The position numbers were made by a program, and so were the translations under genes. DNA of 64,000 nucleotides from a virus. The notes beneath the pieces were generated by a model that saw only the letters and a list, made by a program, of their open reading frames with translations, ran no database searches and was not told the origin of the DNA. Shown here piece by piece: positions 2 to 42,951 of the stretch (position 1 is the stretch's first letter; every line of letters begins with the position of its first letter). Where the stretch lies: positions 1-64,000 of IMG/VR virus record IMGVR_UViG_3300027851_000016. One strand, 5' to 3'.

Positions 2-1453
2 GCCGAAGGTGGGCGGGCCCTTGTGCTCGCCCACCGCGGCGAACTCCTGACGCAGGCCGCCGACAAGCTCGCGAAGACGACCGGCCTGCGCTGTGCCACC
101 GAGAAGGCGGAAGAGAGCTGTCTCGACAGCTGGTACCGCGTCGTCGTGGGGAGCGTCCAGACGCTCATGCGTCCGTCACGCCTGGAGCAGTTCGATCCGT
201 CGCACTTCGATACCATCGTGGTCGACGAGGCGCACCACGTGCTCGCTGAGAGCTATCAGCGGGTGCTCGACCACTTCTACGACGCCCGGGTGCTCGGCGT
301 GACGGCCACGCCCGACCGTGGCGACATGCGCAACCTTGGCAGCTACTTCGACTCACTCGCCTACGAGTACACCCTGCCGCGCGCCATCAAGGACGGCTAC
401 CTGTGCCGCATCGAAGCGCAGACCATCCCGCTCAAGCTCGACCTCACCGGAGTGGCCATCCAAAACGGCGACTTCCGCGCGGCTGACGTTGGTACCGCGC
501 TCGACCCGTACCTGCACCAGATAGCTGACGAGATGCTCGCTGCCGGATGCATAGAGCGGCGCAGCGTCGTGTTCCTGCCGCTCATCAAGACCTCGCAGAA
601 GTTCACGCAGATACTCGCCGATCGCGGCTTCCGCGCAGCCGAGGTCAACGGTGAGAGCACCGACCGCGCCGAGGTGCTCGCAGACTTCGAGGCGGGTCGC
701 TACGACGTGCTCTGCAACTCGATGCTTCTGACCGAAGGATGGGACTGCCCAGCGGTCGATTGCATCGTGGTGCTCAGGCCGACGAAGATCAGGAGTCTGT
801 ACGCTCAGATGGTGGGCCGTGGCACGCGACCGGCGCCTGGCAAGGATTCGCTGTTGCTGCTGGACTTCCTGTGGCACACGGAGCGCCACGAGCTCTGCCA
901 CCCCGCGCACCTCATCGCCGAGAGCACGGACGTTGCCGCCAAGATGACCGAGATCATCGAAGAGGCCGGATGCCCGGTCGACATCGAGGTCGTGGAAGTC
1001 CAAGCCGAGAGCGATGTCGTGTCCGAGCGTGAGGAAGCACTCGCCAAGACGCTCGCCGAGATGAAGCACCGCAAGCGCAAGCTCGTCGACCCGCTCCACT
1101 TCGAGATGTCCATCCAGGCCGAGGACCTCGCCAACTACGTTCCCGCGTTCGGGTGGGAGATGGCGCCGCCGTCCGAGAAGCAGACGGCCACGCTCGAGAA
1201 GCTCGGCATCCTGCCGGACGCGATCGAGTGCGCTGGCAAGGCGTCGCTCCTGCTCGACAGGCTCGACAAGCGCCGCCATGAGGGACTCACCACACCCAAG
1301 CAGATCCGCTTCCTCGAGCAGAAGGGCTTCAACCACGTCGGCACATGGAGCTTCGACGCGGCATCCAAGATGGTCGCGCGGATCTCGGCCAACGGCTGGA
1401 AGACGCCGCTCGGTGTGGATCCCCAGACATACGTACCGGAGGTGCAGCAATGA
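2..1453 (+). CDS. SF2 DEAD/DEAH-type helicase, 5' end outside window
   Basis: The reading frame is open from the first base, so the N-terminus including Walker A lies upstream. GTG at 23 is only an internal codon. Visible SF2 motifs in order are Ia-like VLAHRGELL, motif II DEAHHV, motif III GVTATPDRGD and motif VI QMVGRGTRPAPGK. This is therefore an ATP-dependent nucleic-acid translocase. The last ~170 residues form an extra C-terminal domain (PPSEKQTATLEKLGI, TTPKQIRFLEQKGF) of a kind often seen in phage-encoded helicases. It probably acts in phage replication or recombination, since HNH, primase and RusA genes follow. The stop overlaps the next start (ATGA). Confidence 0.9.
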   Translation, partial: AEGGRALVLAHRGELLTQAADKLAKTTGLRCATEKAEESCLDSWYRVVVGSVQTLMRPSRLEQFDPSHFDTIVVDEAHHVLAESYQRVLDHFYDARVLGVTATPDRGDMRNLGSYFDSLAYEYTLPRAIKDGYLCRIEAQTIPLKLDLTGVAIQNGDFRAADVGTALDPYLHQIADEMLAAGCIERRSVVFLPLIKTSQKFTQILADRGFRAAEVNGESTDRAEVLADFEAGRYDVLCNSMLLTEGWDCPAVDCIVVLRPTKIRSLYAQMVGRGTRPAPGKDSLLLLDFLWHTERHELCHPAHLIAESTDVAAKMTEIIEEAGCPVDIEVVEVQAESDVVSEREEALAKTLAEMKHRKRKLVDPLHFEMSIQAEDLANYVPAFGWEMAPPSEKQTATLEKLGILPDAIECAGKASLLLDRLDKRRHEGLTTPKQIRFLEQKGFNHVGTWSFDAASKMVARISANGWKTPLGVDPQTYVPEVQQ

Positions 1454-11940: not shown

Positions 11941-12330
11941 ATGCAGACGGTGCTGATTCGGAGTGTCACAGGGACTGAGGTACTGCAAGGTTTGCTGCGC
12001 GACCAGGGTGTGATGGTGTGCCACCGCAATGAGGACGGGTTCCGCACGTTCTTGATTCCAGATGCGCTGGACTTCGAGGACACGTTCTACCGTGCGATGG
12101 ATGTGCTGCATGAGCACGGCGTGCGGGTGTCCGCCACAGAGGTGCGGGTCGAGTACAAGGCACCTGGTGCACGTCGCAGGGTCAAGAAGGTCGAGTCGTT
12201 CTGCAACTGGAAGACCACGCATCTGCAGGCACGCCAGATAGCAGAGGTGACGGTGCAGTTCTTCCGTTACGCACGAGACGAGCAGAGAAGAGGACAGCAT
12301 GCGGCTGGGGAGCTGGCTGGAAATCGCTGA
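11941..12330 (+). CDS. hypothetical protein upstream of helicase (129 aa)
   Basis: ATG 11941 follows the ribosome site gaaggagatgggg. The protein is alpha/beta in appearance with a basic patch (GARRRVKKVESFCNWK). Its end overlaps the helicase start by 32 bases, so the two are probably co-translated. I recognise no family. Confidence 0.65.
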   Translation: MQTVLIRSVTGTEVLQGLLRDQGVMVCHRNEDGFRTFLIPDALDFEDTFYRAMDVLHEHGVRVSATEVRVEYKAPGARRRVKKVESFCNWKTTHLQARQIAEVTVQFFRYARDEQRRGQHAAGELAGNR

Positions 12331-14716
12331 GTCTGACGACATCAGTTTCGAACGTCTGAAGGCTACGCTGGAGGTACCGAATCCCGAGTACCTGTCTGCA
12401 GTGCAGCAGGGGTTCAGCACGGCGGGTATGGCGCGGATGGACCCGTTGTACCAGGAGAGCCACAGGCAGGGCGAGCGGACACTGCTTGTCCCGCGTGCAC
12501 TTGTGAACCTGTACGGGCGTGGTAAGGACGTGGTGGACGAGCGGTCGGATGGATTCGACGCGGACATGCCGTTGAAGCTCGCACTGGGTCCCACTGACGA
12601 GCGTAAGGAAGACCAGACGGCGTTCGTGGATGCGGTCGTGAAAGCAGCGACTGCGCGTGCGGGTGCCATTGGGCAAGCGAGTCCTGGGTACGGGAAGCAG
12701 CAAGCCCTGGATTCGCTGCTTTGGACAGAGCAGGGTCTCTTGCTGATGGAAGACGTTCGGGTTGGAGACCGAATCTATGGTGCTGATGGCTTGCTGCACA
12801 CGGTCACAGGAGTGTTCCCGCAGGGGATGCAGAAGAGTTACCGCGTAACGTTCACAGATGGTTCCAGTGTTGAAGCGGGGATGGAGCATCTGTGGACTGT
12901 TCAGAGTGATAGGTCTCGTCGTCAGGGTGGGCGGTGGAAGACCAAGACGCTCCGAGACATCGTTGATTCGGGTCTAGTTAGTAGCGACGGGCATACGCGC
13001 TGGTATGTCCCGATGACACAGCCGATTCAGTTCCCGAAGCAGCTGTATGCGGTAGCTCCGTACGCGCTCGGGTGCTTGCTGGCGGACGGGTCGTTTGTTG
13101 GCGGGGTGTCCTGGTCTAACATGGAAGCTGATGTGCGTGAAAGGCTACAGGCTGCGCTACCTGATGGGTGCAGCCTAGGTGCACCAAGGCAGGGCAAAGA
13201 CCACTATGTTCGTGGGTTCATGCAGTATGCACGGATACTTGGGCTTGCAGGTGTACGGTCGTGGGAAAAGAGTGTGCCGAAGCAGTACTTGTACGGAGCT
13301 GTTGAGGACCGCCTTGCCTTGCTACGTGGTCTGTTCGATTGCGATGGGTCTGTGACCTGTGCAGGGAAGCAGCTGGAGTACACGACATCGTCGTGGCGGT
13401 TGGCGATGGACGTGCAGTTCCTCGTGGAGTCTCTAGGTGGGACTGCACGGAAGGCTAGGCGGACCACGAAGTACACGTACAAAGGTGAGAAGAAAGAAGG
13501 ACGGCCCAGCTATCGACTGACGTTGCTGCTGCCTGATGGATATGAGCCGTTCTCGTCTGAGAAGCACACTAGTAGGTACACGAAGACTGGAAGGTACCAG
13601 CCAAGGCGAGCAATCAAGTCAGTTGAGTACTCTGGGTTAAAGCCCATGCAGTGCATCAGTGTAGACGCACCTGACCAGTTGTACTTGACCGACCATTGCA
13701 TCGTGACGCACAACACGCTGTGTGCGCTCGCCGCTGCTGCCAAGCTGGGCAGGACGACAGCTGTGTTGGTACACAAGTCGTTCCTGATGAACCAGTGGGT
13801 CGAGCGCATTGAGCAAGCACTGGACATCGACCCGAGGGACATAGGGTTCGTCCAGCAGGACCGCTGTGAGTTCCGTGGGAAGAAGATAGTCCTGCTGATG
13901 GCTCAGTCGCTGCTCGCCCGTGAGTACGACCCTGACCTGTACACGTACTTCGGAACCGTGGTTGTGGACGAGGTGCACCGATTCGGTGCGGTCGAGTTCC
14001 GCAAGGTGATTACGAAGTTCCCAGCGAAGTACCGTATCGGCGTGACGGCGACCCCTGACAGACGTGACGGGCTGCAGGAGGTGTTCTTCAAGCACATCGG
14101 TGAGATTGCCCATGTCGGGTCAGTCCCGAGTCTGAAGGCCCGTGTGAAGTTCGTCACTGCGAAGATGGCCGTGACTGACTCGATGTTGCGTGGCATGACT
14201 TCACGGCGGCAGGGCGGGCGGCGGGTCTTCGACCTGAACAAGGTGACCCAGTACGTCGTGGACTGTGAGACGCGGAACCGCCAGATAGTGAAGTTGCTCT
14301 ACGATGCCTTGCGTGCTGGGCGGAAGGTCCTCGTCCTGTCGTCGCGCCGTGAGCATCTGACAGTGATTGCTGACCTGTTTGATGCAGAGATGCCCAAACA
14401 GCATGCGCGGTACTCGCACGGCTACTACGTTGGTGGGATGGCAGAGCGCGACCTGCGTATCACGGCAACACGTCCACTTATCCTGGCGACGTTCCAGATG
14501 GCACAGGAGGGGTTGGACATACCCGACCTTGACACGCTGTTCCTAGTGACCCCGAAGGGCGACATAGTGCAGGCAGTCGGACGTATCCTGCGTCAGCACT
14601 CCGAGAAGCGACCACCGCTGGTAATCGACTTCGTAGAGCCTCAGATTCCGATGTCCGCTAGTCTCATGCGAAAGCGGGCAGGGATGTATCGTGAGATGGG
14701 GTGTATCCTTGACTAG
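12299..14716 (+). CDS. SF2 DNA helicase containing a class 3-type intein
   Basis: The 805-residue precursor would splice to ~466 residues. Walker A is split: N-extein ends SPGYGK (Lys133) and C-extein resumes TLCALAAAAKL (Thr473), giving GYGKT after splicing. Downstream SF2 motifs are VVVDEVHRFG (II), GVTATPDRRDG (III), LATFQMAQEGLDIPD (V-like) and QAVGRILRQHS (VI). It resembles phage UvsW/DEAH-type helicases used in recombination and replication. ATG 12299 overlaps the preceding gene. Activity would require intein removal, because the P-loop is interrupted. Confidence 0.92.
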   Translation: MRLGSWLEIAESDDISFERLKATLEVPNPEYLSAVQQGFSTAGMARMDPLYQESHRQGERTLLVPRALVNLYGRGKDVVDERSDGFDADMPLKLALGPTDERKEDQTAFVDAVVKAATARAGAIGQASPGYGKQQALDSLLWTEQGLLLMEDVRVGDRIYGADGLLHTVTGVFPQGMQKSYRVTFTDGSSVEAGMEHLWTVQSDRSRRQGGRWKTKTLRDIVDSGLVSSDGHTRWYVPMTQPIQFPKQLYAVAPYALGCLLADGSFVGGVSWSNMEADVRERLQAALPDGCSLGAPRQGKDHYVRGFMQYARILGLAGVRSWEKSVPKQYLYGAVEDRLALLRGLFDCDGSVTCAGKQLEYTTSSWRLAMDVQFLVESLGGTARKARRTTKYTYKGEKKEGRPSYRLTLLLPDGYEPFSSEKHTSRYTKTGRYQPRRAIKSVEYSGLKPMQCISVDAPDQLYLTDHCIVTHNTLCALAAAAKLGRTTAVLVHKSFLMNQWVERIEQALDIDPRDIGFVQQDRCEFRGKKIVLLMAQSLLAREYDPDLYTYFGTVVVDEVHRFGAVEFRKVITKFPAKYRIGVTATPDRRDGLQEVFFKHIGEIAHVGSVPSLKARVKFVTAKMAVTDSMLRGMTSRRQGGRRVFDLNKVTQYVVDCETRNRQIVKLLYDALRAGRKVLVLSSRREHLTVIADLFDAEMPKQHARYSHGYYVGGMAERDLRITATRPLILATFQMAQEGLDIPDLDTLFLVTPKGDIVQAVGRILRQHSEKRPPLVIDFVEPQIPMSASLMRKRAGMYREMGCILD
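12698..13714 (+). other. intein (339 aa) with LAGLIDADG endonuclease, helicase P-loop
   Basis: The intein runs from Gln134 to Asn472. It starts with Gln, not Cys or Ser. It has Trp after the block B His (EHLWTV), Cys in block F (MQCISVD) and Thr in block G (IVTHN), the W-C-T signature of class 3 inteins that use the block F Cys as first nucleophile. The +1 residue is Thr. Two LAGLIDADG motifs are visible: LGCLLADG (13067-13090) and LLRGLFDCDG (13319-13348), both with the catalytic Asp, so the homing nuclease looks intact. Confidence 0.88.
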
Positions 14717-26542: not shown

Positions 26543-27682
26543 ATGGCGGACCTGCTCGACTTGCTCATGGAGATGCGAAATGAAGTGCCAGACCATGTAG
26601 CATCGCAGACAGACGCGATGAAGTTTGGTTTGATGGTCAATACGTACGACCCGTTCATGGTCACGTCAGCGCTGCACAAGGAGCTGCGACGTGGCGACTT
26701 CGACCAGGCTGTGTACTGGGCGCTCGTGCTTGAGAAGCTGCGCGGGCGCTTCTTCGTTATGCGGTACGTATCGAACGTGTCGATGGAGGAGAGCCACGCA
26801 CCTGGATTGAAGACGTTCCTGGGGGAGCTGTTCATCGGGTACAAGAACACGACGTTGCTCGATGTTATGCGTGCCGTCGAAGCGTTCTGCAACTGTAGGT
26901 ACGCGAAGTACATGACAGAGGCGGAGGACTACACGTGGCAGGCTGACAGCACGATATGGGGTGGTGTGCGAGAGCATGCCAAGGAGGGTCGTAGGCTGTT
27001 CGAGCCGAAGCCTGAACTGCTAGCCAAGTGGTCGAAGAAGCTGCCGAAGACTGCCAGAGTGCCTGTGCGTGATGGGCTGTACCAGTCTGAGGAGGTCATG
27101 GCACTGCTTGAGCAGTTCATCGAGGAGAAGGATTACACGTCTGCCTTGTACATCGTGCACCTGTGCAACGTGTGGCCTGCGGTGCACAAGTACACGAAGG
27201 ACCTGCTTGTATGCTCTGACGACACCGAGGAGATGCACAGGGTTCTGAATGACAAGTTGATGAAGGAGCACTCGTTTTGGGGGTTTGACTACGAGACGCT
27301 GCTCATGCACCGCATGGATGCTGTCGGGGACATGTCTGACTGGAATGCTGGACCGACGCGCACGGATGACGAGCTGCGCGAGGTGCTGGCTGGTGTGTAT
27401 GCCGAAGTCGCAGGGAAACAGCTACGACCGATTCCGTTCTACGCAGTCGATGCGCATACGCGAGAGGGAAAGCGTGTGTGGTTGACGCAGCGCAAGCAGA
27501 TTCGACCGAATGCTCCGTGTACGGTGGCTGACCTGCGGTATGCGGCGAACTGGGTGTCGATGCTCTGGCGCAGGGAGGCATGGAAGCAGTTCGGGACGAT
27601 TCATGTTGCCTGGGAGGATGTCGTGTTGCCAGAAGACAGGTATTACAAGGCGCTCTGGAAGGGAGTGTACCCGCATGAGTAG
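26543..27682 (+). CDS. hypothetical protein, possible clamp-loader-like C-terminal domain
   Basis: ATG 26543 has a weak ribosome site. The 379-residue helical protein has HKELRRGDFDQAVYWALVLE near residue 48, reminiscent of the helical C-terminal domain of MgsA/clamp-loader subunits (..LRGSDPDAALYWLARM..). No Walker motifs are present, so it is not an ATPase. The resemblance is weak. Its end overlaps the flavoprotein start by eight bases, tying it to the cassette. Confidence 0.6.
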   Translation: MADLLDLLMEMRNEVPDHVASQTDAMKFGLMVNTYDPFMVTSALHKELRRGDFDQAVYWALVLEKLRGRFFVMRYVSNVSMEESHAPGLKTFLGELFIGYKNTTLLDVMRAVEAFCNCRYAKYMTEAEDYTWQADSTIWGGVREHAKEGRRLFEPKPELLAKWSKKLPKTARVPVRDGLYQSEEVMALLEQFIEEKDYTSALYIVHLCNVWPAVHKYTKDLLVCSDDTEEMHRVLNDKLMKEHSFWGFDYETLLMHRMDAVGDMSDWNAGPTRTDDELREVLAGVYAEVAGKQLRPIPFYAVDAHTREGKRVWLTQRKQIRPNAPCTVADLRYAANWVSMLWRREAWKQFGTIHVAWEDVVLPEDRYYKALWKGVYPHE

Positions 27683-28871
27683 GGTTCTTGTCCTCGGTGG
27701 CGGGCTTGCTGGGATGACCGTGGCAAAGGCTCTTGCAGGCAGCCACGACGTGCGGGTGCTTGAGCAGGAGGACCGACTGGGTGGCCTGCTGCGTACGTTC
27801 CGTGGCACCGTAGACGGGGTCGGTGAGTTCCGCTTCGACATCGGTGGGCATTGGCTGCATCGGGACGGGTTCTCAGGTGTGGCCGACCTGTTCTCAGGAC
27901 TGGTCGAGCACGAGCGCCATGCCTTCGTGTACGTGAACGGGAAGCATGGGCGGTTCCCGATTCAGGCGTTCTACGATGACGTGTTTGATGGGGAGACAGC
28001 CGTAAGCATCTGTGAGGAGTTGGCAAACAGGACAGACGACCAGCCCAGGTCATACGCTGACATGCTGCAGAAGAGCTATGGGGAGACGCTGTTCGACAGG
28101 TTCTTCGAGCCGTACAACCGCAAGCTGTTCGGTGTGCCAGACCTGACACCCATCAGCTTCGGTGAGTTGGAGTTGGTGCGGAACGTTAGAGTCGGAGACA
28201 AGGCGGGGTACAACAGCACGTTCCTGTATCCCGACGGGCAGGGCATCGAGTCGCTGATTGAGGACCTGAAGGATGACCGCGTCGAGTACATCCTTGATGA
28301 GATGGCAGTGCACGTCGATACGCAGGCGCACATCGTGACCTGTGCAGACGGTACCCCGTACACGTATGACGTACTCGTATCGACAGTCCCGCTCGACATG
28401 CTCACTGCGATGGTAGGCGAGCCGCTATACCTGCTGGGGTCTCAGGGACTTGTGATGAACATGGGGGTCAAGAAGAACCCGAATCACGTCGGAAAGAACT
28501 GGGTGTACTACCCAGATGATGGTCTGCCGTTCTACCGTGTCGGTCTGTATAGCGAAGCCGACCCGACTGCTGCTCCTGAAGGGTACGTGGCAATGTACGT
28601 CGAGGTGTCCACACTGCGCCCGTGGACCAACGCAGAGGTAATGCTGGGCCTGCAGAAGGTCGGGATGATTGAGAGTCCGACCGATGTGGTGCTGCAGCAG
28701 GCCGCGTACCTGCCGACGAACTACTGCTTCGCTGACCCGCGTGTTCCAGGGGTCTTGCAAGCATTCCGTTTGGCTGGTGTGCACTCGATTGGACGGTATG
28801 GGAGCTGGCACTGGTCGTCCATGCACGAGGATGTGAAGCAGGCGCTCGAACTGGCGGAGAGGATTCGGTAA
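27675..28871 (+). CDS. FAD-dependent UDP-galactopyranose-mutase-like protein
   Basis: ATG 27675 overlaps the preceding gene. The 398-residue protein starts with a dinucleotide fold LVLGGGLAGMTVAKAL (GxGxxG at ~8-13), then EQEDRLGGLLRT and DIGGHWLH, characteristic of UDP-galactopyranose mutase and related amine-oxidase-like flavoproteins. Later TVPLDML and SIGRYGSWHWSSMHED fit the FAD-binding C-terminus. It may convert or oxidise a nucleotide sugar. Mutase versus oxidoreductase activity cannot be decided from sequence alone. It opens the cassette. Confidence 0.8.
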   Translation: MSRVLVLGGGLAGMTVAKALAGSHDVRVLEQEDRLGGLLRTFRGTVDGVGEFRFDIGGHWLHRDGFSGVADLFSGLVEHERHAFVYVNGKHGRFPIQAFYDDVFDGETAVSICEELANRTDDQPRSYADMLQKSYGETLFDRFFEPYNRKLFGVPDLTPISFGELELVRNVRVGDKAGYNSTFLYPDGQGIESLIEDLKDDRVEYILDEMAVHVDTQAHIVTCADGTPYTYDVLVSTVPLDMLTAMVGEPLYLLGSQGLVMNMGVKKNPNHVGKNWVYYPDDGLPFYRVGLYSEADPTAAPEGYVAMYVEVSTLRPWTNAEVMLGLQKVGMIESPTDVVLQQAAYLPTNYCFADPRVPGVLQAFRLAGVHSIGRYGSWHWSSMHEDVKQALELAERIR

Positions 28872-29290
28872 TGATGTACGTTCGGTATCTGTGGACGGTC
28901 CTCAAGCACAAGTGGTTCGTCTTCGTTGAGTGCGCCAAAGAGGGAATCGCGTGGCGTGGGTTGATTCATGACATGAGCAAGTTCCTGCCAAGTGAGTGCA
29001 TTGCGTATGCAGAGTATTTCGAGGGTGACCCAGATGATAACGTGGCGTTCAATGCTGCGTGGGCATTGCACGTGAGGCGGAACGACCATCACTGGCTCCA
29101 TTGGCTTGTGGATGGTGAGGCGCAAGAGATGCCGTTTGAGGCTGTAGTCGAGATGGTCTGTGACTGGGTTGGGGCGGCGCGGGCGTACAAGGGTGATGGA
29201 ATTGTACCGTGGTACACCCAGAACGGTCCGAACATGGTGCTACATGCTAAGACCCGTGAACTGGTTGAGGAACTTGTGAGTGTGCGATGA
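28871..29290 (+). CDS. DUF5662 family protein (139 aa)
   Basis: ATG 28871 (or 28874) overlaps the flavoprotein stop. GLIHDMSKFLPSECIAYAEY and HVRRNDHHWLHWLVD match the His-rich pattern of DUF5662. The HD and clustered histidines suggest a metal-binding, HD-like hydrolase fold, but activity of the family is unknown. Its place between sugar genes may be incidental. Confidence 0.75.
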   Translation: MMYVRYLWTVLKHKWFVFVECAKEGIAWRGLIHDMSKFLPSECIAYAEYFEGDPDDNVAFNAAWALHVRRNDHHWLHWLVDGEAQEMPFEAVVEMVCDWVGAARAYKGDGIVPWYTQNGPNMVLHAKTRELVEELVSVR

Positions 29291-30744
29291 GACTCCTGTA
29301 CCTGCCGCTGTACACGAACAAGAACCTGAATGGGGACAGCAGCTACAACGTCGCGTCGAAGTTCATCGCGAGTGCGGTCGAGCGTGGGTGGTTCGTACAC
29401 TGGGTACTGCCCCAGGTGGGTGGTGGTAGCCGCTTCCACTATGAGGGGTCGAGGGCTGCGATTGAGAACCACCCGCAGGTCCTCGTGCATCGTGTGCCCT
29501 CCATCGAGGACCAGTACATGCAGACAGGCGTGGTGCCTGCAGACGTGTTGTTCAGGCTGTTCAGTCAGCACCAGGGCAGGTATCACATCGACGCTGTGCT
29601 CACGGAGAAGCCTGCGAGTGCGGCGTATGTGCGTAAGTTGCTCCAGCACCCGTTCACACGTCCTGCGAAGGGCAAGAACAGGTGGCTCGGTAAGACTCCT
29701 GCACTGCCCATGTTCGTTCGCGACCCGTTCACGAAGTCCCAGGAACTGCACATCATCAGCGATGTCGAGGAGGTCGAGCAGTCTGTCGGGTACCTGACCA
29801 GCTACAGCATCTTCATGTGCCAGACGGACTTCGATATGGCCTCGAAGGTCGCGAAGCGGTACCTGAACTACGGGCAGGTCAAGAAGATGCAGGCTCGGTC
29901 GGTGGTGCTCCCGCCAGGTACGGCGACGGCAGAGTTGTTGCCCGTCAGGGAGGCGGCGGTCAAGCGGGACAGGTTCACTGTACTGATTGCCGAGCGTTTG
30001 AAGAACGGTGCGCTCATGGATTCGCTCGATGCAGTGGACTACATGTTCAAGCGTGGGTACCAGATGGATGTCGTAATCAGCTCGCAGTCGGAACTGAACC
30101 GCAAGACGCTCATGAACTACCCGACTGTCTTCGAGCACGCAGAACTGCACCCAGCGAACCCGAGAGACCAGTATCTGCCGCTGGCTGCGGCGTGCCACGC
30201 AACGATTACGATGCCCTCGACGCACAGCTACCCACAGGGTCTGATGGAGCGGCTGTACTTGGGACTCGTTGCGGTGCTGCCCGACTACCCATGGGTGCAC
30301 ACGTTGTTGCCCGACTATCCGTTCGTGGTGAAGCGGAACGTGAAGTCGATGGTGGCGATGCTCAAGTGGATTGAGGAGAACTACGAGGAGGCCAAGCAGA
30401 AGGTCGCCTGGGTGCCTGGGTACATCGAGGAGCACTACGATGCCCAGTTGCTGGCGGAGAAGACGATGCGGCATATCGAGGAGACGACGGCGCTGGTTCG
30501 CGCGAGTTCGGCACCATCGAGCGGGTTCTTGGAGTTGATTGACCAGTTCGACTTCGATGAGGCAGACGAAGAGACGCTGTTTGAGTACATGAAAGCGCAT
30601 TCGACCACGGGACTGTCGTTCAACAATGAGGGGAAGACTGCTGCGTTCGGCAGCTACAAGTCGCAGTTGTTCCAAGCGATGCGGCATCGTGGGTGGGAAG
30701 ACACGTGCGAGGGTCCGTTCGTGACGATGAGGAGGAAGAGCTGA
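29287..30744 (+). CDS. GT-B fold glycosyltransferase (first copy)
   Basis: ATG 29287 overlaps the previous stop. The 485-residue protein has an N-terminal Rossmann-like start (MRLLYLPLYTNKNLNGDSSY) and a C-terminal nucleotide-sugar domain with FTVLIAERLKNGALMDSLDA and MERLYLGLVAVLPDYPW, the equivalent of the E-x7-E region of GT4-type enzymes. It most likely transfers a sugar from a nucleotide-sugar donor. Acceptor is unknown. It is only distantly similar to the second copy at 33956. Confidence 0.72.
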   Translation: MRLLYLPLYTNKNLNGDSSYNVASKFIASAVERGWFVHWVLPQVGGGSRFHYEGSRAAIENHPQVLVHRVPSIEDQYMQTGVVPADVLFRLFSQHQGRYHIDAVLTEKPASAAYVRKLLQHPFTRPAKGKNRWLGKTPALPMFVRDPFTKSQELHIISDVEEVEQSVGYLTSYSIFMCQTDFDMASKVAKRYLNYGQVKKMQARSVVLPPGTATAELLPVREAAVKRDRFTVLIAERLKNGALMDSLDAVDYMFKRGYQMDVVISSQSELNRKTLMNYPTVFEHAELHPANPRDQYLPLAAACHATITMPSTHSYPQGLMERLYLGLVAVLPDYPWVHTLLPDYPFVVKRNVKSMVAMLKWIEENYEEAKQKVAWVPGYIEEHYDAQLLAEKTMRHIEETTALVRASSAPSSGFLELIDQFDFDEADEETLFEYMKAHSTTGLSFNNEGKTAAFGSYKSQLFQAMRHRGWEDTCEGPFVTMRRKS

Positions 30745-31406
30745 TGTCGTTGTACGACAAGGACAAGATAGTTGGATGCTTCGAGAGCGAGGAGCAGTGG
30801 CGTGATGAGGCCGACGAGATAATCGCCATGCAGATGAGCTACCGCTCACACGCTTTGATGATGGGCAAGGTTGTTGACACGTTCTTCGATGTGGTCGAGC
30901 GGAACCATGGTGCAGCGACGGTTCTCGATGTCGGCTGTGGCACGGCCATGTTCCTCGACTACGTTCGTGAACAGTACGGTCTGCACCGTGTGGAGCGGTA
31001 CGTTGGGTACGAGTTGGTCACACGATTCGGGGAGAAGGCAGCGCAGAAGCTCGAAGACTATGGTGTCCGTGGAGCGATTGTGGGTGCCGACTTCTTCGAC
31101 CTGGGGACCACCGCAGCACCAGCTGACCTGGTGATTGCCTCGCAGTGTCTGAACACGGTGTTCAGCGATGACCCGCTGGCCTTCATCGCGATGGCAGTGG
31201 ACCAGCTGTGGTCGATGACGCGGCACTCGCTCGTGTTCGACCTGAAGGATGTGGCTGCTCCGAGGATTCTCGACCCGCACCTGCGGACGTACTACGACCC
31301 TGTGTACGTGTACAAGGTGTGCCGTGACCACACGGTGAACGTCACAGTCAGCCAGACCACGAAGGCGAACTTCACGGTGGTCATGTCGCGGGAGGAGCTG
31401 TACTGA
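30744..31406 (+). CDS. class I SAM-dependent methyltransferase
   Basis: ATG 30744 follows aggaggaagagctg and overlaps the glycosyltransferase stop. The 220-residue protein has SAM motif I VLDVGCGTAMFLDYV at ~60-74, an acidic strand end (GYELVTRF) and motif IV-like ADLVIASQCLN. Size and lack of a target-recognition domain favour a small-molecule or sugar methyltransferase rather than a DNA methylase. Its coupling to sugar genes supports this. Confidence 0.8.
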   Translation: MSLYDKDKIVGCFESEEQWRDEADEIIAMQMSYRSHALMMGKVVDTFFDVVERNHGAATVLDVGCGTAMFLDYVREQYGLHRVERYVGYELVTRFGEKAAQKLEDYGVRGAIVGADFFDLGTTAAPADLVIASQCLNTVFSDDPLAFIAMAVDQLWSMTRHSLVFDLKDVAAPRILDPHLRTYYDPVYVYKVCRDHTVNVTVSQTTKANFTVVMSREELY

Positions 31407-32551
31407 TGATTCTGCTTCTCGGCAAGGGGGAGGGTCTGCAGGCTCTGACCGATGTGTTTGCTGGTGAGGATGCGGTTGCACTCACTGATGCGGGCAGGAC
31501 ACCTGACGAACTGTGTGCGGATGTCCGAAGTGTCCTAGAAGTCCACGAGTTCGAGTTCGCCGTGGCTAATGGACTGTCTTGTGCGAAGGCCCTGGACGTA
31601 CTCGATGGTGTGGGTGTGCCCACGGTCGGCGCGACGACACAGGATTGGCATATCGAGATGGACAAGCCGTTCGGCAAGAAGTTGTGCGCCGAAGTCGGTG
31701 TAGGCACGAGCGAGTGGTGGACGGTGGACTTGGCTGACCTGGATGAAACGGAGTGGGAGTTTCCGTGCTACGTGAAGCATCGCAAGGCCATCGGCGGGAC
31801 GACCTCGTTCAAGGTGCACTCGAAGAAGCAGATACGAAACCTGATTCGTGCGTATGGCTACGAGCGCGGGTTCATCGTGGAGCTGCCACTTGCAGGCATC
31901 GAGTTCAGCATGAATGCGCTGATTGGTGCTGAGAACTGGCAGGTGATTGGTTGCAACTACGACATGAAGGGGCCGACAGGCAAGGTGGTCGGGAATGCCT
32001 ATGGTGCGGCTGGTGAGCATACAGCTTGGATTGAGGGGCAGCTTGCTCCGTTGTTCCAGGCGGTATGTGGGATGGGTTACCGAGGAGTGCTCGCCGTGAC
32101 GGTGTTCATGACCGACGAGGGACTTCGCATGATTGAGCTGAATGTACGTGTTGGGACAGGGTCGGGGTACACGTACCTGAACAACGTCTCGAACATGGCG
32201 GACATGCTGCGAGCCTGTGCGCTCGGGCAGAGCATCCCTGCACCGCAGTTCAAGCATCTGTACGGGCTGTCGGTCACGGTGGACTCAGGCTTGAGGCGAG
32301 AAGCGTATGACCTTGAGGTCGGGCTTCTTGAGCCGCTGGGTGATGGTGTGGTGCTGGTCGAGAACAATGTGTACGACGGGATGAGCAACGGTGCCGCCCC
32401 GTACCTACTGGTCGGGTTCGGTGACTCGTCATTGCAGAGTGTTGGAGAGACCCTGATGGAGAACTTGAGGTGTTTGGATGTCCCACTGATGTCTAAGCCT
32501 GAACTAGACCTTGACCGTTTCGATAGACTGGCGGAGGTGCTGCCACGATGA
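31406..32551 (+). CDS. ATP-grasp ligase
   Basis: ATG 31406 follows ggaggagctg. The 381-residue protein has a PurD/carbamoyl-phosphate-synthase-like order: N-terminal preATP-grasp domain, VPTVGATTQDWHIEMDKPFG, a lysine strand FPCYVKHRKAIGG, and the metal-binding MIELNVRVGTG near residue 245. ATP-grasp enzymes activate a carboxylate as acyl phosphate and join it to an amine or thiol. In this cassette an amino-sugar acceptor is plausible because a PIG-L deacetylase is next but one. The substrate is unknown. Confidence 0.82.
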   Translation: MILLLGKGEGLQALTDVFAGEDAVALTDAGRTPDELCADVRSVLEVHEFEFAVANGLSCAKALDVLDGVGVPTVGATTQDWHIEMDKPFGKKLCAEVGVGTSEWWTVDLADLDETEWEFPCYVKHRKAIGGTTSFKVHSKKQIRNLIRAYGYERGFIVELPLAGIEFSMNALIGAENWQVIGCNYDMKGPTGKVVGNAYGAAGEHTAWIEGQLAPLFQAVCGMGYRGVLAVTVFMTDEGLRMIELNVRVGTGSGYTYLNNVSNMADMLRACALGQSIPAPQFKHLYGLSVTVDSGLRREAYDLEVGLLEPLGDGVVLVENNVYDGMSNGAAPYLLVGFGDSSLQSVGETLMENLRCLDVPLMSKPELDLDRFDRLAEVLPR

Positions 32552-33213
32552 AGATTGTCGTGCACCAGCCTGTGTTCCTGCCGTACCTTGGAGTGGTGGG
32601 CAAGATTGCACACGCGGACGGGCTTGTCCTGCTCGATGACGTGCAGTATGTCCGTCGTGGGTTCATGAATCGGAACCGCATCCTGACGAAGGATGGTGAG
32701 CACTGGCTGACCGTGCCCGTTCGAAAGGCTCCGCAGGATACGCAGGTCAAGGACATCGAAATCAGCTACGAGACCGACTGGCAGCGGCAGATGAAGCGTA
32801 CGCTGGAGATGGCGTATGGGAAGGCTCCGCACTTCGAGGCAACGATGGCGGCATTGCAGCCCTTGTGGGTAGCGAAGCCCAATCACCTGATGGACCTGAA
32901 TGTTCTGCTGCTTGAGCGAGTGTTGAAGTTCTTCGGGGTCAGTGTGCCTGTGTGGTGGAGCAGTGACTTCCCCCCTGTCGAGGACCCGACGCAGCGTTTG
33001 CTGGATAGGGTCGAGCGTGTTGGTGGCACTGTCTACGTGGCTGGTGCGAACGGGAAGGCGTACATGGAACTGACGGGGGACGAACGTGTGAAAGTACAGT
33101 TCGAGGAGTATGCTTGTCCCGAGTACGCGCAGTTCAACAGCACCGAGTTCGTACCGTACCTCTCGGTGGTGGACTACATGATGAACGTCGGGGCGGTGCG
33201 GAAAGCACTGTAG
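32548..33213 (+). CDS. WbqC-family protein
   Basis: ATG 32548 overlaps the ATP-grasp stop. The 221-residue protein has the family hallmark HQPVFLPYLGVVGKIAHAD at the N-terminus, then LLDDVQYVRRGFMNRNRI and WLTVPV. WbqC-like genes recur in bacterial polysaccharide clusters and have been proposed to act in acylation of amino sugars; the reaction is not settled. This gene links the cassette firmly to glycan assembly. Confidence 0.85.
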   Translation: MKIVVHQPVFLPYLGVVGKIAHADGLVLLDDVQYVRRGFMNRNRILTKDGEHWLTVPVRKAPQDTQVKDIEISYETDWQRQMKRTLEMAYGKAPHFEATMAALQPLWVAKPNHLMDLNVLLLERVLKFFGVSVPVWWSSDFPPVEDPTQRLLDRVERVGGTVYVAGANGKAYMELTGDERVKVQFEEYACPEYAQFNSTEFVPYLSVVDYMMNVGAVRKAL

Positions 33214-39853: not shown

Positions 39854-39985
39854 ATGAGTCTCGTACCACCGTCGAAGTTCGACCAGGGCAGGTTCGCTCT
39901 TGCATACCTGACGATTGTCATGACGGTCGCAGGGGCGTGCGGAGTCACATGGTTGGTGGCCAAGCTGTTTGGCATGCTTCCGTGA
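39854..39985 (+). CDS. very small membrane protein (43 aa)
   Basis: ATG 39854 follows aggagaggac. One hydrophobic segment (LTIVMTVAGACGVTWLVAKL) covers most of the C-terminal half. The stop overlaps the terminase GTG. No family is recognised. Confidence 0.5.
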   Translation: MSLVPPSKFDQGRFALAYLTIVMTVAGACGVTWLVAKLFGMLP

Positions 39986-42951
39986 TAGACCTGAACGACC
40001 TCCGACTGAAGCCGATGCTCGATGAGTTGACGCGTGGGTTCACGCAGTCGGACATCGAACTGCTGAAGGCCGTGCTCAAGCAGAATCCTGGCAGCGAGAT
40101 AGAGGTGCTGCAGGACCTGATGGGGTACACGTATAGGCACACGCCCGTACCGACCCGCCAGTTCATCGAGGACCCGTACTACCTGGGGCTGCAGGGTCAG
40201 GTGTTCCCGAAGCTGCTGGATGACATCGAGGAGTTGTTCGAGGGGGAGTATGTCGAGGCGGTACTCACTGGCGCGATTGGGTGGGGTAAGGCGTGCAGCC
40301 TTGACACGCGGGTACCGACACGTCATGGGTGGACGACCTTTGGTGAAGTCACGGTCGGGGACGAACTGTTCGATGAGCAGGGTAGGCTCTGTAAGGTAAC
40401 CAAGAAGACAGAAGTCATGTACGACAGGCCCTGCTTCGAAGTCACGTTCTCAGATGGGACGAAGCTGGTTGCAGATGCGGAGCATCAGTGGCTTGCATCC
40501 GAGTGGTCTGAGCGAGCTAATGCTGCGCGGAGTGGGGGAGAGCTGCATGAGCGTGTGGTCACGACTGCGGAGATGGCAGCCAGCCTGAAGCACGGTCGAA
40601 TGAACAACTGGGCTGTGCGGGTTGCAGAGGCACTGGACCTGCCAAAGCAGGTGCTACCAGTAGACCCATACGTGCTCGGTGTGTGGCTCGGAGACGGGAA
40701 CTCAGCAGACGGTGCGTTCACGTGTTTCGACCCAGAGATTGTCGAGGAGATTCGCAGGCGAGGCTACGAGGTTCGTGAGCAGCACGCTTCGCAAGGAAGG
40801 TACACGATAGTAGGGCTGAAGGTGCAGTTGCGGGAGCTGGGCGTGCTTGGGAACAAGCATGTGCCTGCCCTGTACTTTAGAGGTAGCATCGACCAGCGCA
40901 CGGACTTGCTCAAGGGTTTGATGGATACGGATGGTTCGATTGAGACTTGTGGTCGTGCAGAGTTCGTCGGTGTGAGCAAAGCACTCGTAGAGTCCGTACG
41001 CGAACTCGCTGCAAGCCTCGGGCACAAGCCTGTGTGGTCAGAAGGAACAGCACGTGTTGATGGCAAGGATTGTGGAGCAAAGTACCGAGTCCGATTCACG
41101 CCAGACACGCCTGTGTTCTGTTTGACTAGGAAGTTGGAGCGGCAACGCGTGGCGGGGAAGCAGGGACTGCGGAACAAGCGCAGGTACGTGACTGCTGTGG
41201 TTCCAGTAGAGAGTGTTCCAGTCAGGTGCATCGAAGTGGATTCACCATCGCACTTGTTCCTGGTAGGTGACTGCTTCGTCCCGACGCACAACAGCACGTT
41301 CGCTGAGATAGCCCAGTGCCGCATGCTCTACGAAATCAGCTGCCTGAGAGACCCGCAGAGGGTGTACGGACTGATGCGTGGGTCGGTCATCGTCCTGCTG
41401 AACGTCGGTGTGACGCGGACCAACGCCGAGAAGATTGTCTTCCAGGGGGTCAAGAACAAGCTGCACGCTGCCCCGTACTTCGTGGAGAAGTTCCCGTACG
41501 GGCCGTGGATGAACGAACTGAGGTTCCCGAACAACATCTGGCTGTTCCCCGCAACGCCGAGCGACAGTGGTGTCATCGGGTACAACGTCTTCGGCGGGGT
41601 CATGGACGAAGTGAACTTCATGAGCATCGTGGAGAAGTCGAACTCGTCTCGGGGTGGGACGGGTCGGTTCGACCAGGCGGAGACCCTGCACAAGTCTCTG
41701 ATTCGACGGATGAAGTCCCGATTCATGAAGAAGGGCAAGCTCCCTGGCATCCTGCTGCAGATTTCGTCTAGTCGGTACCCCGAGGACTTCACCGAGCGCC
41801 GCATCAAGGAGGCTGAGGATGACCCGACGGTCTTCGTGCGTCGGTACAGCCAGTGGGACACGTTCCCCGAGGACAGATGGACTGGGAAGCGGTTCTGGAT
41901 AAGCCTCGGAGACGGCACGGAACAGCCACGGGTGATACACGGCCCCGAGGAGCTGAAGGCGGCGGAGGACAAGGGCCTGCCCCTGTTGGATGTGCCCGAG
42001 GAGTTCGAGCGTGACTTCGAGGCTGACATCGACGCTGCGATTCGAGACCTGGCTGGTCGGCCTACGCTCACGATTCGCCCGTACATCCGCTACCGACACA
42101 AGGTGGCGGAGGCGCTGGCGCGGGGCGAGACCGAGTTGGGTCTGGTGCACCCGTTCTCGAAGACGGAGTCCACGCTGAAGGATGGCGGCTCGTTCGTACT
42201 GGAGAAGCTCGCCATCCCGAGGCTCAAGCAGCAGATTGCGAGTGGCACACTGGGGGACGTGGAACTGGCAGCAGCCAAGGACGAGCTTGCGTTCCTGAAG
42301 AGCAAGCCCCGCTTCGTCCATGCTGACCTCTCGGTCACGGGGGACAGCACGGGTATCGCGATGGGTTACGTCCGTGGGTACCGTGAGGTGGTCAGACGGA
42401 ACGAGGCGGGGGAGCAGTACACGACGCGTATGCCCATCGTCGTGATTGAGTTCATGCTCAGGGTGAACCCACCGCAGAACGGCGAGATTGAGTTCGCTGA
42501 CGTGCGGTCGCTCGTACTGGAGCTGCGGAGCTACGGGTACCCGATTCGAAGCGTCACGTTCGACTCGTTCCAGTCCCGTGACTCGATGCAGGCGTTCAAG
42601 CGGGTAGGAATCGACTCGTCGCACCTGTCGGCGGACACGAACCTTGAGGTGTATGCTGCGTACAAGGATGCGCTCTACGAGGACAGGTTCATCACGTACC
42701 AGTACGACAAGCTGTTCGAGGAGACCATCCGACTGGAGAAGAACGAGAAGACGGGAAGGGTGGACCACCCTGCGAACGGTTCGAAGGACGTGGCAGATGC
42801 GGTCGCTTGCGTATGCTACGGCTGCGTCAAGGACGGCATCAGGTCCCCCGCTCCGCCTCCGTCGTACGGCGACATGTCCACGCCACGACAGTCGTCAGCG
42901 GTGCCCACGATGGGGGAAGTGGAACCGAGAGTTCCCGAGATAGTCACGTAG
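39982..42951 (+). CDS. terL: terminase large subunit containing a class 3-type intein
   Basis: GTG 39982 overlaps the preceding stop; a longer in-frame start (39937) would run through that gene. The 989-residue precursor splices to ~655. Walker A is rebuilt from GAIGWGK (to Lys103) and STFAEIA (from Ser438). Walker B is VFGGVMDEVNF and the nuclease domain has VHADLSVTGDS, TFDSFQSRDSMQ and SKDVADAVA, with Asp residues for two metals. It packages DNA into the prohead through the portal and cuts concatemers. The start of the virion module follows. Confidence 0.93.
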   Translation: MIDLNDLRLKPMLDELTRGFTQSDIELLKAVLKQNPGSEIEVLQDLMGYTYRHTPVPTRQFIEDPYYLGLQGQVFPKLLDDIEELFEGEYVEAVLTGAIGWGKACSLDTRVPTRHGWTTFGEVTVGDELFDEQGRLCKVTKKTEVMYDRPCFEVTFSDGTKLVADAEHQWLASEWSERANAARSGGELHERVVTTAEMAASLKHGRMNNWAVRVAEALDLPKQVLPVDPYVLGVWLGDGNSADGAFTCFDPEIVEEIRRRGYEVREQHASQGRYTIVGLKVQLRELGVLGNKHVPALYFRGSIDQRTDLLKGLMDTDGSIETCGRAEFVGVSKALVESVRELAASLGHKPVWSEGTARVDGKDCGAKYRVRFTPDTPVFCLTRKLERQRVAGKQGLRNKRRYVTAVVPVESVPVRCIEVDSPSHLFLVGDCFVPTHNSTFAEIAQCRMLYEISCLRDPQRVYGLMRGSVIVLLNVGVTRTNAEKIVFQGVKNKLHAAPYFVEKFPYGPWMNELRFPNNIWLFPATPSDSGVIGYNVFGGVMDEVNFMSIVEKSNSSRGGTGRFDQAETLHKSLIRRMKSRFMKKGKLPGILLQISSSRYPEDFTERRIKEAEDDPTVFVRRYSQWDTFPEDRWTGKRFWISLGDGTEQPRVIHGPEELKAAEDKGLPLLDVPEEFERDFEADIDAAIRDLAGRPTLTIRPYIRYRHKVAEALARGETELGLVHPFSKTESTLKDGGSFVLEKLAIPRLKQQIASGTLGDVELAAAKDELAFLKSKPRFVHADLSVTGDSTGIAMGYVRGYREVVRRNEAGEQYTTRMPIVVIEFMLRVNPPQNGEIEFADVRSLVLELRSYGYPIRSVTFDSFQSRDSMQAFKRVGIDSSHLSADTNLEVYAAYKDALYEDRFITYQYDKLFEETIRLEKNEKTGRVDHPANGSKDVADAVACVCYGCVKDGIRSPAPPPSYGDMSTPRQSSAVPTMGEVEPRVPEIVT
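40291..41292 (+). other. intein (334 aa) with LAGLIDADG endonuclease, terminase P-loop
   Basis: The intein runs from Ala104 to Asn437; starting at Ala rather than Cys105 restores GWGKST exactly. Block B has Trp after His (AEHQWLAS), block F has Cys (VRCIEVDSP) and block G ends VPTHN, giving the class 3 W-C-T set; +1 is Ser. LAGLIDADG motifs are LGVWLGDG (40675-40698) and LLKGLMDTDG (40906-40935). Because a Cys is at position 2, a class 1 reading starting there is possible but leaves an Ala in the P-loop. Confidence 0.85.

What the first reader, a model, noticed from the sequence alone, without database searches (positions are those of the whole stretch)
12698..13714. Class 3-type intein starting with Gln in the P-loop of a phage SF2 helicase
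Seen: the intein begins Gln-Gln-Ala-Leu-Asp, so it lacks the usual Cys/Ser first residue. It has Trp two residues after the block B His, Cys in block F and Thr before the final His-Asn. Known: this W-C-T set defines class 3 inteins (mycobacteriophage Bethlehem DnaB intein type), where the block F Cys attacks the N-terminal junction. A helicase host with Gln1 adds to the small range of class 3 positions. The P-loop is split exactly between Lys and Thr, so helicase activity depends on splicing.
Basis: partly seen in the sequence, partly recalled or inferred. Interest (0 to 1): 0.72.

Follow-up and report, generated by a model that had tools for sequence, protein, structure and literature searches.

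The report
Class 3 intein in phage helicase
A phage DNA helicase gene carries a self-splicing protein insert of a known type (class 3 intein with a homing endonuclease) exactly in its ATP-binding loop; the reading is sound, but this arrangement is common and already known.

Summary
ORF 12299-14716 encodes an SF2 (ResIII/XPB-like) helicase interrupted in frame by a 339-aa intein at 12698-13714. Removing it restores ASPGYGK|TLC, which lines up with four intein-free phage helicases, so Gln1 belongs to the intein. His64/Trp66 (block B), Cys319 (block F) and Thr337-His338-Asn339 form the full class 3 WCT set. AlphaFold gives a confident HINT-plus-LAGLIDADG fold (pLDDT 96), matching PI-SceI and class 3 DnaB inteins. 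A splicing-domain tree puts it on the class 3 side of a well-supported split from class 1 controls.

The claimed rarity does not hold. Of 93 distinct relatives, 89 follow a P-loop GK and all have Thr or Ser at +1. First residues vary widely. Three other Gln1 members also sit in SF2/SNF2-type helicase P-loops. Phage EL ORF40 has the same layout. Class 3 inteins also interrupt RecG in actinomycetes. A 2020 paper counted 1701 class 3 inteins, 82.5% with LAGLIDADG motifs.

The same phage carries a second class 3 intein, from another lineage, in its terminase P-loop (40291-41292). Verdict: a new member of a known kind, with low novelty. Splicing itself is inferred, not shown.

The parts
12299..14716 (+). 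Precursor ORF, 805 aa: SF2 (ResIII/DEAD-like, phrog_16) phage DNA helicase containing the intein
12299..12697 (+). N-extein, 133 aa, ending in the first half of the P-loop (ASPGYGK)
12698..13714 (+). Class 3 intein, 339 aa, Gln1 to Asn339
12887..12895 (+). Block B His64-Leu65-Trp66 (the W of WCT)
13049..13351 (+). Core of the LAGLIDADG (DOD) homing endonuclease domain: block C ALGCLLADG, block D K191, block E LLRGLFDCDG; all acidic and Lys positions kept
13652..13654 (+). Block F Cys319 codon (the C of WCT, predicted branch-point nucleophile)
13706..13714 (+). Block G Thr337-His338-Asn339 (the T of WCT, penultimate His, cyclising Asn)
13715..13717 (+). Thr+1: second nucleophile and also the P-loop Thr of the spliced helicase
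13715..14713 (+). C-extein, 333 aa, rest of the helicase motor (DEVH box, helicase C domain)
40291..41292 (+). Second class 3 intein of the same phage (334 aa, Ala1, THN|S) in the P-loop of the terminase large subunit ORF 39937-42951; different class 3 lineage

Best explanation
This is a mobile class 3 intein with a LAGLIDADG homing endonuclease, inserted in the P-loop of a phage SF2 helicase. After translation, block F Cys319, held with His64 and Thr337, attacks the Lys(-1)-Gln1 peptide bond. The N-extein passes to Thr+1, Asn339 cyclises, and the exteins join to give GYGKT, restoring the ATP site. The endonuclease would copy the element into intein-free P-loop alleles. Shown here: sequence, boundaries, class signature, predicted fold, relatives and position in the family tree. 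Inferred: that it splices, that the chemistry follows class 3, that the endonuclease cuts, and that the unspliced precursor is inactive.
For: The joined exteins align with intein-free helicases RcZahn, V-YDF132, DLP5 and RHph_Y1_11 across GKT with no gap. WCT plus H64, H338 and N339 are present and invariant or nearly so among 14, 56 and 93 relatives. A profile of its family scores the solved class 3 DnaB inteins (6RIX, 6BS8) highest, above class 1 gp41-1. AlphaFold pLDDT is 96.3 and pTM 0.93; the fold matches PI-SceI over the full length (TM up to 0.80) and the class 3 Msm/Mch DnaB inteins (TM to target up to 0.85). Class 1 controls and class 3 separate with 99/94 support and this intein is on the class 3 side. 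The class definition and mechanism are from PMC3196547, PMC5222942 and PMC6195587.
Against: No splicing data exist for this protein. Block B has Gly61 where the characterised Msm DnaBi1 has Asp (DxxH); Gly is common here, in 22 of 93 relatives. The record is a metagenomic virus contig with no cultured phage, so expression is not known.
Confidence: 0.93

Rival explanations
1. It splices without the block F Cys, as a class 2 intein does: Thr+1 attacks the N-terminal junction directly and Cys319 is only structural.
For: It lacks a nucleophile at position 1, which class 2 inteins share; a +1 nucleophile is present.
Against: The complete WCT set and the tree position with class 3. PMC3196547 says class 2 inteins were found only in KlbA.
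Confidence: 0.03
2. It is a dead or cleavage-only intein, like the Arthrobacter FB24 Arth_1007 class 3 pseudogene, so the helicase gene is inactive.
For: The Gly at block B position 7 differs from the characterised DnaB inteins. Inactive class 3 inteins are known (PMC3196547).
Against: All splicing residues and the endonuclease acidic residues are intact, the frame is open, and the exteins keep helicase motifs aligned with intein-free homologues. The pseudogene lacked the block F Cys; this one has it.
Confidence: 0.04
3. It is a chance reading of an unusual helicase insertion domain, not an intein.
For: Pfam's own hit in the insert is only LAGLIDADG_3; no splicing-domain model is listed.
Against: Full-length homology to inteins in unrelated hosts such as terminase, RecG and T4SS ATPase; the HINT fold; the exact restoration of the P-loop.
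Confidence: 0.005

Closest known systems
Pseudomonas phage EL (phiEL) ORF40 helicase intein, CAG27134 (L209)
   Same: Phage SF2-type helicase, insertion GFGK|...THN|T in the P-loop, His-x-Trp, block F Cys, THN.
   Different: First residue Met, much shorter endonuclease region.
Gln1 class 3 inteins in IMG/VR helicases L058, L062, L093
   Same: Gln-Gln start, SF2/SNF2-type helicase P-loop, complete WCT.
   Different: They fall on separate branches of the tree; L062 has Ser+1. No splicing data are known to me.
RecG class 3 inteins of Lentzea, Saccharothrix, Streptomyces and a Rhodococcus plasmid (L115, L124, L133, L017)
   Same: Nearest neighbours in the tree (94/80), GSGK|AQPLD...THN|T in a helicase P-loop (L017 THN|T with K at +2).
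   Different: Bacterial or plasmid RecG host; first residue Ala; up to 53% identity over the 127 splicing-domain columns for L124.
Mycobacterium smegmatis DnaBi1 (6BS8) and M. chimaera DnaB1 (6RIX) inteins
   Same: Characterised class 3, P-loop insertion, WCT triplet, HINT fold.
   Different: Mini-inteins with no endonuclease; block B DxxH instead of GxxH; +1 is Ser.
Deinococcus radiodurans Snf2 intein and Mycobacteriophage Bethlehem DnaB intein
   Same: Founding class 3 inteins shown to splice efficiently; Snf2 is a helicase-family host (literature).

Membership tests
Class 3 inteins | No Ser, Thr or Cys nucleophile at intein position 1 | tested here: met
   Gln1; boundary fixed by intein-free homologues.
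Class 3 inteins | WCT triplet: Trp at B:12, Cys at F:4, Thr at G:5 | tested here: met
   W66, C319, T337 aligned in 93 relatives.
Class 3 inteins | Groups with class 3 inteins and apart from class 1 inteins | tested here: met
   Split 99/94 between 10 class 1 and 39 class 3 or window rows. The 127-column alignment is short and the bootstrap had not fully settled.
Class 3 inteins | Block F branched intermediate, splicing dependent on Cys F:4 | not testable with these tools
   Needs expression and mass spectrometry.
Class 3 inteins | HINT fold with splicing blocks A, B, F, G | tested here: met
   AlphaFold pLDDT 96.3; Foldseek to 6BS8 and 6RIX with TM to target up to 0.85.
Class 1 inteins | Cys, Ser or Thr at position 1 starts the reaction | tested here: not met
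   Position 1 is Gln.
DOD (LAGLIDADG) homing endonuclease inteins | Two LAGLIDADG motifs with acidic catalytic residues | tested here: met
   LAGLIDADG_3 E=1.3e-11; D130 and D216 present; match to PI-SceI. Cutting activity not tested.
SF2 helicase (host protein) | Walker A GxGKT, DExH box and helicase C domain after splicing | tested here: met
   ResIII 4.6e-15; Helicase_C 9.1e-05, just under Pfam's cut-off; phrog_16 DNA helicase 6.8e-42; alignment with four phage helicases.

The most novel reading that the evidence does not exclude
The phage carries class 3 inteins in the Walker A loops of two ATPases, a replication helicase and the packaging motor. Both might act as Cys-dependent, for example redox-sensitive, switches that delay ATPase activity during infection, as proposed for M. 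smegmatis DnaBi1.
Probability: 0.06. Interest if true: 0.55.

Novelty: new member of a known kind. Interest (0 to 1): 0.13.

Why it matters
On its own it adds one more member to a large family. It shows that position 1 of class 3 inteins is close to free: of 93 relatives, Ala 43, Gly 13, Phe 9, Ser 7, Gln 4 and others. That fits a nucleophile that has moved to block F. It also shows that the P-loop K|T/S site is the usual home in the relatives sampled here. The helicase plus terminase pair offers two class 3 inteins of different lineages in one phage.

Tried and rejected
A search of the C-extein alone in viral contigs and of the intein alone in bacterial genomes found nothing, because the single-sequence patterns were too specific; alignment queries worked. 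Mycobacteriophage Bethlehem was not held under the accessions tried, and the founding class 3 papers are not held, so class 3 features rest on later open papers. I considered whether Gln1 could be a retained host residue (GKQ|Q); intein-free homologues rule this out. I considered Gln1 as a special feature; three other Gln1 members on separate branches argue against it. Active-site distances could not be measured because the model file is not exposed.

Full report
Observation. The window is bases 1-64000 of a 91,152-base IMG/VR virus record. ORF 12299-14716 (805 aa) encodes a helicase whose matches are ResIII, Helicase_C (just under Pfam's cut-off) and phage DNA helicase phrog_16. Bases 12698-13714 are an in-frame stretch of 339 codons that begins QQALDSLLWTEQG and ends DHCIVTHN.

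Boundaries. I joined the two flanks and aligned the product with intein-free helicases of Rhodobacter phage RcZahn, Vibrio phage V-YDF132, Stenotrophomonas phage DLP5 and Rhizobium phage RHph_Y1_11. The alignment runs through ASPGYGKTLC against SAYTGWGKTFL, EAPTGFGKTVV, QAPTGWGKTYG and VAQTGFGKTIL with no gap at the junction. This places the split between P-loop Lys and Thr, and shows that Gln1 belongs to the intein rather than the host.

Class. Class 3 inteins are defined by the absence of a position 1 nucleophile and by Trp at B:12, Cys at F:4 and Thr at G:5 (PMC3196547). All are present: H64-L65-W66, C319 and T337-H338-N339. In 93 distinct relatives H64, C319, T337, H338 and N339 are invariant and Trp is kept in 91. 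A profile of the family scores the solved class 3 DnaB inteins first, above class 1 gp41-1. In a splicing-domain tree with ten class 1 inteins as controls, class 1 and class 3 separate with 99/94 support; this intein lies nearest to class 3 inteins of actinomycete RecG helicases (94/80). The tree rests on 127 columns and its bootstrap had not settled, so fine placement is tentative.

Fold. AlphaFold with 56 rows gives mean pLDDT 96.3 and pTM 0.93. Foldseek finds PI-SceI over the full length (TM to query up to 0.80), class 3 Msm and Mch DnaB inteins (TM to target up to 0.85) and the LAGLIDADG enzyme I-DmoI. Both LAGLIDADG acidic residues and the block D Lys are present, so the homing endonuclease looks intact.

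Mechanism, inferred. By the class 3 pathway (PMC5222942, PMC7664689, PMC6195587), Cys319 would attack the Lys-Gln1 bond with help from His64 and Thr337, hand the N-extein to Thr+1, and Asn339 would cyclise. The +1 Thr is also the P-loop Thr, so the precursor should lack a working ATP site. None of these steps was tested.

How unusual is it? Not very. In the survey, 89 of 93 relatives follow a P-loop GK, and +1 is Thr in 88 and Ser in 5. The survey was gathered by similarity to this intein, and junctions were snapped to a nearby GK, so the fraction is biased upward. First residues are Ala 43, Gly 13, Phe 9, Ser 7, Gln 4 and others. The three other Gln1 inteins (L058, L062, L093) also sit in SF2/SNF2-type helicase P-loops and on separate branches. 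Phage EL ORF40 has the same layout with Met1. The K|T P-loop site was called a classic insertion in mycobacteriophage terminases (PMC5050341). A 2020 study counted 1701 class 3 inteins, 82.5% with LAGLIDADG motifs (PMC7891396).

A second intein. ORF 39937-42951, the terminase large subunit, holds another class 3 intein at 40291-41292 (GAIGWGK|ACSLDT...VPTHN|STF). It is about 30% identical to the first and groups with Msm/Mch DnaB inteins (98/88), not with the helicase intein, which points to separate acquisition. Phage EL also has two, in adjacent helicase genes ORF39 and ORF40, so this too has precedent.

Verdict. The reading is right in anatomy and class; the suggestion of rarity is wrong. 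This is a new member of a known kind.

Noticed in passing
window 40291-41292 (+), in ORF 39937-42951: Second class 3 intein of the same phage, in the terminase large subunit P-loop (K|A1...THN|S), with a LAGLIDADG domain; it groups with mycobacterial DnaB class 3 inteins rather than with the helicase intein.
   Followed up: yes
L048 3489-4592 and L070 2723-3835: Inteins with the full WCT set that nevertheless start with Cys (GLGK|CLINNT, GLGK|CLSINE). They carry both the class 1 and the class 3 nucleophile and could test how the classes interconvert.
   Followed up: no
window 27510-33213: Run of genes matching a flavin amine oxidoreductase, DUF5662, a methyltransferase, a weak ATP-grasp and a WbqC-like protein; an unusual small-molecule or sugar-modification set for a phage.
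   Followed up: partly
phage records H22, H23, H34, H38, H87, H125, H128, H161-H164: Proteins with class 3 intein matches are often labelled 'DarB-like antirestriction' in phage records, including terminases, probably an annotation error carried by the intein.
   Followed up: no
L115, L119, L123, L133, L137 and many Streptomyces loci: RecG-type helicase P-loop class 3 inteins with LAGLIDADG domains look widespread in Streptomyces and related actinomycetes; RecG identity was tested by profile only for L115 and the Rhodococcus plasmid L017.
   Followed up: partly
window 23-1453: A second SF2 helicase gene (ResIII, Helicase_C) at the edge of the contig; its N-terminal part, including the P-loop, seems to be cut off.
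   Followed up: no
L164, L175, L182: Class 3 inteins outside a P-loop, at RGR|A...THN|T of what looks like a PhoH-type protein (host identified by eye only).
   Followed up: no
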